Shown here piece after piece: positions 18,172 through 18,544 of a stretch of 64,000 nt of DNA (its first letter is position 1; every line of letters starts with the position of its first letter). The notes under the pieces are model-generated. The model searched no databases. It saw only the letters and a list, made by a program, of their open reading frames with translations, and was not told the DNA's origin. The position numbers and the translations under genes are program-made. Location: assembly GCA_921293015.1 (NCBI GenBank), contig OV121085.1, positions 24,999,911 through 25,063,910 of the forward strand, in the 5' to 3' direction. The stretch is from Phorcus lineatus. Its lineage: Eukaryota > Mollusca > Gastropoda > Trochida > Trochidae.

Positions 18172-18330
18172 CATTTCAAAAAGAAGTCTCATTAATTTTT
18201 CTGACTCCCCATGATACTTCGATGTTAGACTTGATGATGATACGTTAAAAAAAGTTGTTTGGCATTCTGTAGCAACAGCTTTAGCTAGCATAGTCTTGCC
18301 AGTACCAGGCGGCCCCACCATCAGCACGCC
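18172..18330 (-). CDS. KATNAL1: Katanin p60 exon 6b: second copy of Walker A/pore-loop exon
   Basis: A 159-bp exon, phase 0 at both ends, preceded by a pyrimidine tract and AG (18331-18332) and followed by GTACGT (18171-18166). Its 53 residues begin G-V-L-M-V, carry the Walker A motif GPPGTGKT and end L-L-F-E-M. They match 6a at 50 of 53 positions. The differences are Gln for Gly after A-T-E-C, His for Arg in the pore-loop motif K-Y-x-G-E-S-E-K, and Met for Val before R-L-L-F-E-M. At least 30 codons differ only synonymously from 6a, so the copy is old and has been kept under selection on the protein. Inclusion in place of 6a would keep the frame. Confidence 0.85.
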
Positions 18331-18385
18331 CTATCCACAGGAAGAGAAAAGAATGCATGCATAATGAAGCTGATATAGTTCTTAC
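18331..18385 (-). promoter_or_regulatory. 55-nt spacer between alternative katanin exons 6a and 6b
   Basis: The spacer starts with the 6a donor GTAAGA and ends with a pyrimidine-rich tract and the 6b acceptor ATAG. If spliced it would be a 55-nt intron, below the size most animal spliceosomes handle, because branch site and donor would be too close. Steric exclusion of this kind enforces mutually exclusive use in other genes. That it does so here is inference. Confidence 0.7.
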
Positions 18386-18544
18386 CATTTCAAACAGCAG
18401 TCTGACTAGCTTCTCTGATTCACCTCGGTACTTGGATGTCAGACTGGAGGAGGATACATTAAAGAAAGTAGTGCCACACTCAGTTGCAACTGCCTTTGCT
18501 AACATCGTCTTCCCAGTACCTGGAGGACCAACCATTAAAACACC
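18386..18544 (-). CDS. KATNAL1: Katanin p60 exon 6a: first copy of Walker A/pore-loop exon
   Basis: A 159-bp exon, phase 0-0, with acceptor CAG at 18547-18545 and donor GTAAGA at 18385-18380. The 53 residues carry Walker A GPPGTGKT (ATP binding), then [11 protein letters not shown] and the pore-loop 1 motif K-Y-R-G-E-S-E-K. The residues are those of vertebrate KATNAL1 almost throughout, including the Gly after A-T-E-C, so this is probably the default version. It joins in frame to the preceding exon, which ends R-R-P-W-K. See 18172-18330 for the alternative copy. Confidence 0.9.

What the first reader, a model, noticed from the sequence alone, without database searches (positions are those of the whole stretch)
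18172..18544. Tandem duplicated Walker A/pore-loop exon in a katanin gene, laid out as mutually exclusive exons
Seen directly: two 159-bp exons, both phase 0-0, each with good splice sites, separated by 55 nt. They encode 50 of 53 identical residues although at least 30 further codons differ synonymously, so the duplication is old and both copies have been held by selection. A spacer this short normally cannot be spliced as an intron, which would force a choice of one copy. Using both would duplicate the ATP-binding loop. I know of no described mutually exclusive exon pair in katanin. It would let one gene make two severing enzymes that differ inside the motor core.
Basis: partly seen in the sequence, partly recalled or inferred. 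Interest (0 to 1): 0.9.

Follow-up and report, generated by a model that had tools for sequence, protein, structure and literature searches.

The report
Katanin's ancient swappable pore-loop exon
A mollusc gene for the microtubule-cutting enzyme katanin carries two versions of the exon that binds ATP and grips the substrate, laid out so that a messenger RNA should take only one, and the same two versions (arginine or histidine at the gripping loop) recur in related animals, so one gene probably makes two differently tuned cutters.

Summary
Two 159-bp phase 0-0 exons (6a 18544-18386, 6b 18330-18172, minus strand) lie 55 nt apart in an intact katanin p60 gene of about 82 kb, the only such gene found in its genome; its last four exons lie just outside the window. 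They differ at 33 synonymous and 3 replacement codons; synonymous sites are saturated (pS 0.88, dN 0.05), so both copies are old and under selection. The nearest relative found is Haliotis: a gastropod, not a bivalve.
The pair is not private. Six gene models from an annelid and four bivalves carry two copies in the same order, first KYRG/KWRG, second KYHG/KWHG; position 40 (R/H) is the only one that differs in all seven pairs. Of 45 transcript-sized contigs from mixed animals, 34 carry R, 11 H, none both (13 of them molluscan or annelid: 4 R, 9 H). R/H is scattered over the gene tree about as shuffled labels are. Echinoderm rows fall into two exon classes.
Best explanation: mutually exclusive exons, enforced because a branch point in the spacer lies at most about 31 nt from the 6a donor. 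No junction reads were available; the enzymatic effect is inferred.

The parts
18386..18544 (-). Exon 6a (R form): Walker A GPPGTGKT and pore loop 1 SKYRGESEK; protein residues 244-296
18172..18330 (-). Exon 6b (H form): Walker A identical, pore loop 1 SKYHGESEK; also G24Q and V47M
18331..18385 (-). 55-nt spacer: 6a donor GTAAGA, best branch-point candidate TTCAT with its A at spacer position 21, UGCAUG (Fox-type motif) at spacer position 25, pyrimidine tract, AG of 6b
19694..19799 (-). Exon 5, the common upstream partner, ends in phase 0 (...RRPWK)
29245..29348 (-). Exon 4
32768..32927 (-). Exon 3 (basic linker)
   Evidence: matches the Haliotis linker
40811..41001 (-). Exon 2
50272..50439 (-). 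Exon 1 of the coding sequence (MIT domain, start ATG)
18010..18121 (.). Foldback with 29-nt arms, 97% complementary, beginning 50 nt after the 6b donor; relevance to splicing unknown

Best explanation
Exons 6a and 6b are a mutually exclusive exon pair. SHOWN: two intact, equally phased, strongly conserved copies 55 nt apart, in the only katanin gene of this type found in the genome; the same ordered pair in gene models of other species; in other animals, R-only and H-only products but none with both on transcript-size contigs. INFERRED: the spacer is too short to form a lariat. Any branch point at least 18 nt (a recalled minimum) from the 6b acceptor lies at most about 31 nt from the 6a donor, below the roughly 50-nt limit, so 6a cannot be joined to 6b. 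The spliceosome joins exon 5 either to 6a or to 6b and then to exon 7. INFERRED: the choice swaps arginine for histidine in the X-R-G motif of pore loop 1, in every subunit of the hexamer, so the H enzyme has a less positive, possibly pH-tunable grip on the acidic tubulin tails. GUESSED: a UGCAUG in the spacer lets Fox-type proteins favour 6a and repress 6b, as in FGFR2.
For: Synonymous saturation with 3 replacements. One gene of this type found in the genome; both isoforms read as 490 residues. Six gene models from five species carry R then H: Lamellibrachia, Tegillarca (two models), Pinctada, Mytilus coruscus, Mya; position 40 is the only one of 53 that differs in all seven pairs, the window included. 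Among 322 fetched proteins (each search listed its best 120 of nearly 8000 scored) the pattern used found two exon-6 copies in seven katanins: these six and Myotis; all seven come from contigs of 0.4 Mb or more. Of 45 transcript-size rows, 34 R, 11 H, 0 both. R/H needs 11 changes on a tree built without exon 6; 200 label shuffles need 8 to 16, mean 12.4. Near-identical sisters differ: Mytilus edulis H, M. trossulus R, M. coruscus both; the Mya H-only and two-copy models have zero-length branches; the transcript-size R-only row P0141 likewise against two-copy Tegillarca. Branch-point geometry; threshold: PMC7969005 passages, PMC5740500 passages. X-R-G motif: PMC8369831 passage.
Against: No RNA reads were available, so no junction has been seen in this species. 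That 55 nt is too short is taken from vertebrate work; I did not measure the shortest spliced introns of this genome. The 45 transcript-size contigs are judged to be cDNA only because they hold frames of about 470-540 residues on contigs under 5 kb, and they come from mixed animals, many of which may have the R exon alone: only 13 of the 45 were placed among molluscs and annelids (4 R, 9 H), and 8 of those 9 H rows lie in clades that show H only. The protein collection is clustered at 90% identity, so R and H isoforms of one gene cannot be seen side by side, except for the two Mya models. Leaving residue 40 out, the 62 lophotrochozoan copies hardly form two classes (mean 5.37 differences within, 5.66 between R and H; 23 of 2000 shuffles reach this), so 6b orthology across species rests mostly on residue 40; Haliotis H differs from window 6b at three residues and from 6a at two. 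RNA folding of the region is weaker than in shuffles (z +2.2). Six genome-based models include both copies.
Confidence: 0.85

Rival explanations
1. Both exons are included, giving a 543-residue katanin with a doubled Walker A and pore loop.
For: The frame stays open, and six gene models in other species do include both.
Against: 0 of 45 transcript-size contigs carry both (only 13 of them placed among molluscs and annelids); the models with both lie on large contigs, that is, genome annotations; the spacer leaves no room for a branch point beyond about 31 nt; a second Walker A inside the AAA core would break the fold (inference).
Confidence: 0.05
2. One copy is a relic that is no longer used; the gene works with the other alone.
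For: Some lineages seem to keep one form only: heterobranch rows are all H, cnidarian rows all R.
Against: Both copies here keep 50 of 53 residues against saturated synonymous sites and keep splice sites; 0 of 20000 random draws do so. H-only and R-only products exist in molluscs.
Confidence: 0.05
3. The R and H forms in the databases come from two paralogous genes, or the exon was duplicated several times with the same R to H change, and the pair in this window is a local duplication.
For: Babylonia has an R and an H protein on contigs of different length that fall apart on the tree, so some snails may have two genes. Apart from residue 40 the R and H copies of lophotrochozoans are hardly distinct, as repeated duplication, or gene conversion between the two copies, would also give.
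Against: R/H does not follow the tree of the rest of the protein (11 changes against 8-16 shuffled); one gene was found in this genome; in six models both forms sit side by side in R-H order; repeated duplication would need the same change at the same residue in the same copy each time.
Confidence: 0.08
4. The pair is alternative but not strictly exclusive: tissue-dependent use, with skipping of both (437 residues, lacking Walker A) as a dominant-negative third form.
For: Skipping keeps the frame.
Against: No skipped product was looked for or seen; loss of Walker A should kill ATP binding.
Confidence: 0.08

Closest known systems
OGDH exons 4a/4b (vertebrates)
   Same: Ancient exon duplication kept exclusive by branch points 25-41 nt (human) from the upstream donor; isoforms differ in a regulatory motif of an enzyme (PMC7969005, passages)
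   Different: Other gene; the intervening intron is 118-131 nt in birds and mammals, against 55 nt here; branch points there are mapped, here predicted
FGFR2 exons 8/9 and C. elegans egl-15 5A/5B
   Same: Exclusive pair; UGCAUG in the intron between the FGFR2 exons represses the downstream exon (PMC2880598, passages); the spacer here holds UGCAUGCAU
   Different: Motif alone here, one occurrence with about 1.6-2.7% chance; no factor shown
KATNA1/KATNAL1 catalytic subunits
   Same: MIT, AAA, lid and Vps4_C domains; exon 6a equals the solved KATNAL1 chain 6b5c except at one residue
   Different: The three katanin chains shown aligned (5zql, 5zqm, 6b5c) carry R (MEI-1 chains were listed, not shown aligned); no exon choice in katanin p60 turned up in my paper searches
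Vertebrate paralogues KATNA1 and KATNAL1
   Same: Two catalytic subunits with slightly different AAA cores
   Different: Two genes, both R at pore loop 1 in the chains and the two vertebrate rows used; here one gene, by splicing

Membership tests
Mutually exclusive exon pair | Tandem homologous exons of equal length and phase | tested here: met
   159 bp each, phase 0-0, 50 of 53 residues identical
Mutually exclusive exon pair | Both copies intact and under selection | tested here: met
   pS 0.88, dN 0.048, splice sites kept
Mutually exclusive exon pair | Each copy is used alone in mature products | tested here: inconclusive
   34 R-only and 11 H-only transcript-size contigs of other animals, 13 of them molluscan or annelid (4 R, 9 H); none known to be from this species
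Mutually exclusive exon pair | Both copies never together in a transcript | tested here: inconclusive
   0 of 45 transcript-size contigs; six genome-based models do fuse both
Mutually exclusive exon pair | Mechanism that prevents joint inclusion (donor to branch point under 50 nt) | tested here: inconclusive
   Met by prediction: at most about 31 nt for a branch point 18 nt or more from the acceptor; criterion in PMC5740500. No branch point was mapped
Katanin p60 catalytic subunit (A1/A-like 1) | N-terminal KATNA1 MIT domain, AAA domain, AAA lid, Vps4_C | tested here: met
   Pfam PF21126, PF00004, PF17862, PF09336 above cut-off
Katanin p60 catalytic subunit (A1/A-like 1) | Pore loop 1 X-R-G motif | tested here: met
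   Met by exon 6a; exon 6b has X-H-G instead (motif from PMC8369831)
Fox-regulated exclusive exons | UGCAUG near the repressed exon and Fox-dependent switching | tested here: inconclusive
   Motif present once in the spacer, not in either exon nor within 300 nt on either side; dependence not testable here

The most novel reading that the evidence does not exclude
An R/H pore-loop switch by exon choice in katanin arose before protostomes and deuterostomes parted and is still used by molluscs, annelids, brachiopods, bryozoans and echinoderms to make two severing enzymes with different grip on tubulin tails (for instance differing in dependence on glutamylation), while vertebrates and most arthropods kept only the R exon. 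Support: in 12 ambulacrarian rows the exon-6 peptides fall into two classes (R-R and H-H pairs differ by 2.2 of 53 on average, R-H by 6.5, while the rest of the AAA part differs equally), and H and R alternate between close relatives. Against one origin: in lophotrochozoans the two classes are hardly distinct outside residue 40, so gene conversion or repeated change must be allowed for. After this last test I lowered the probability from 0.5 to 0.45.
Probability: 0.45. Interest if true: 0.85.

Novelty: new member of a known kind. Interest (0 to 1): 0.74.

Why it matters
The katanins whose solved chains I saw aligned carry arginine at pore loop 1. If many invertebrates, including the sea urchins from which katanin was first isolated (recalled), make an H enzyme as well, then pore-loop charge is a regulated variable and not a constant of the machine. 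A single-residue swap at the substrate-gripping loop of an AAA motor, kept for a very long time, is a natural experiment: comparing the two purified enzymes would test directly what that loop does in severing and in reading tubulin tails.

Tried and rejected
Considered and rejected: a decaying or recent copy (synonymous saturation); two paralogous genes; a local oddity of one genome; competing RNA structures as in Dscam (the 501-nt fold is weaker than shuffles, z +2.2). Myotis davidii P0006 has two identical R copies; Orchesella P0225 is two katanins run together, both R, the second copy cut short so that my pattern missed it. Neither belongs here. Not every row supports an old pair: the named Owenia, Capitella, nemertean, hemichordate, cnidarian and arthropod rows were R only; heterobranch rows and one annelid-like cluster of five unnamed rows were H only; so losses must be assumed. 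Three unnamed H rows (P0015, P0016, P0032) sit on a long branch and were not identified. The trees used rows that I chose: 80 of 322 fetched proteins, and 42 of 322 plus the window (Nematostella and sea urchin among the 42; 37 single-form rows counted, 5 two-copy rows left out of the count). The 45 transcript-size rows are the rows among the 120 listed with lgn, jgi or ena as only sources and a longest contig under 5 kb. Not done: shortest introns of this genome; species naming beyond the nearest relative.

Prior art: in the held open-access library, katanin with 'mutually exclusive exons' gave 2 papers (one checked by passages and irrelevant, the other seen in the listing only), katanin with 'exon duplication' 1 (a p80 katanin gene of a butterfly, passages), katanin with MXE the same 2, katanin with alternative-splicing terms 12, seen as a listing only. 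I saw none about this pair. Most subscription journals are not held. The structure paper PMC7060837 was not held; I used a passage of the review PMC8369831 instead. Passages of PMC7018516 and of PMC13370650 were seen and not used for the argument; the latter's disease variants are at other residues.

Full report
Observation. They encode 50 of 53 identical residues. 36 codons differ, 33 of them synonymously; by the Nei-Gojobori count pS is 0.88 (saturated) and dN 0.048, and 0 of 20000 random placements of 41 differences kept three or fewer amino-acid changes. Both copies are therefore old and have both been held by selection.

The gene. Exons 1-5 lie at 50439-50272, 41001-40811, 32927-32768, 29348-29245 and 19799-19694. 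No exon after 6b was found in the window. The host genome (958 Mb, 74 contigs) supplied the adjoining 80 kb, where exon 7 begins about 310 bases below the window start and exons 7-10 complete the protein; splice sites are canonical, the gene spans 82,481 bases, and the 6a and 6b isoforms both read as 490 residues. The product has the katanin MIT domain, the AAA domain, the AAA lid and Vps4_C. The genome-wide searches found one such gene; the exon pair gives the only matches of 94% or more. Exons 1-5 are 76% identical to Haliotis rufescens, the next best 64%, and the window protein is sister to Haliotis with support 100/99, so the animal is a gastropod.

The pair in other animals. A search with exon 6b returned six gene models, from Lamellibrachia (annelid), Tegillarca (two models), Pinctada, Mytilus coruscus and Mya, in which two copies follow each other; in each the first copy reads KYRG or KWRG and the second KYHG or KWHG. 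Position 40 is the only one of 53 that differs in all seven pairs, the window's included; G24Q and V47M of the window are not general. Among 322 fetched proteins (the best 120 of each of three searches, overlapping) the pattern used found two exon-6 copies in one further katanin, Myotis, where they are identical. Proteins with R alone and with H alone are common in molluscs.

Exclusive use. Of the 45 rows that come only from unnamed contigs under 5 kb, which are probably cDNA because they carry frames of about 470-540 residues, 34 carry R, 11 H and none both. They come from mixed animals: the tree puts 13 of them among molluscs and annelids (4 R, 9 H), and 8 of these 9 lie in clades that show H only. 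The most telling row is P0141, R only, with a zero-length branch beside two-copy Tegillarca. On a tree made from the protein without exon 6, R/H changes 19 times among the single-form rows of 80. On the smaller tree it changes 11 times among 37 single-form rows (molluscs, annelids, Nematostella and a sea urchin); 200 label shuffles gave 8 to 16, mean 12.4. So the form recorded for a species is nearly unrelated to its gene lineage: Mytilus edulis H, M. trossulus R and M. coruscus both; the two Mya models, on contigs of the same length, with zero-length branches, one H, one both. This is what picking one isoform per species gives. Two paralogous genes or a fixed substitution fit poorly.

Why not both. 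The spacer has one branch-point candidate that fits yUnAy (a recalled consensus) at all three scored places, with its A at position 21, 34 nt before the 6b acceptor; the last A at least 18 nt before the acceptor is at position 32, about 31 nt from the donor. Work on OGDH places the limit for donor to branch point near 50 nt (PMC7969005, passages), and the human survey used under 50 bp as its steric criterion, met by 57 of its 629 clusters, 9% (PMC5740500, passages). Whether gastropods share this limit was not tested.

Choice. The spacer holds UGCAUG once, absent from both exons and from 300 nt on either side; the chance is about 1.6% (Markov) to 2.7% (local frequency). In FGFR2 a UGCAUG between the two exclusive exons represses the downstream one and favours the upstream one (PMC2880598, passages). 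The parallel suggests that Fox proteins favour 6a here; it is a guess. A foldback with 29-nt arms starts 50 nt after the 6b donor.

Meaning of the swap. [quoted passage not shown] Replacing arginine by histidine in the subunits would lower the charge that meets the acidic tails and make it pH-dependent. That the enzymes differ in this way is inference; no H enzyme is among the katanin chains shown aligned.

Age. In 12 ambulacrarian rows exon-6 peptides form two classes: mean differences 2.2 (R-R), 2.2 (H-H) and 6.5 (R-H) of 53, with similar divergence in the rest of the AAA part (0.17-0.19); with residue 40 left out the observed split is the most extreme of all 792 ways to label five of twelve. 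Asterias H against Patiria R (6 differences), and Diadema R against two urchins H (7 each), make a single exon with a point change unlikely. That these are an exon pair of one gene in echinoderms is not shown. In lophotrochozoans the same test gives little: 5.37 differences within and 5.66 between R and H copies, reached by 23 of 2000 shuffles, so copies of one gene may have been homogenised, or the change repeated. In one search the cnidarian (4 of 4), vertebrate (2 of 2) and named arthropod (4 of 4) rows are R; three unidentified H rows sit on a long branch.

Verdict. A mutually exclusive exon pair in katanin, shared at least by molluscs and annelids, with one pore-loop residue as its one constant difference. 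As a mechanism it is a known kind; in katanin it was not found in print by the searches named.

Noticed in passing
P0003 (Lamellibrachia satsuma), residues after the exon-6 pair: The next exon (ARFYAPSTIFVDEIDSIC...EASRR) is also present twice in this annelid model, perhaps a second exclusive pair; one copy was found in the window species.
   Followed up: partly
window 28834-29234: Array of 8.3 copies of a 48-bp unit starting about 10 bases after the exon 4 donor.
   Followed up: no
window 56692-60150, minus strand: Long frame with a reverse transcriptase and a weak RNase H match, followed by a frame without Pfam match that looks by eye like a tyrosine recombinase: perhaps a DIRS-like element; a related broken copy seems to lie at 22440-26289 (by eye).
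   Followed up: partly
window 11270-12987: Reverse transcriptase frame (RVT_1), plus strand, LINE-like by eye.
   Followed up: no
window 18010-18121: Foldback with 29-nt arms, 97% complementary, 50 nt after the 6b donor; a 28-base stretch across one arm occurs once in the window. Could be a small transposon remnant or affect splicing.
   Followed up: partly
P0125 and P0137 (Babylonia areolata): Two katanin proteins on contigs of different length, one R and one H, that do not group together: some caenogastropods may have duplicated the gene.
   Followed up: no
P0144, P0145, P0147, P0149, P0152, P0155, P0164, P0200: The heterobranch-like rows seen all carry the H form with tryptophan (KWHG), suggesting loss of the R exon in that lineage.
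   Followed up: no
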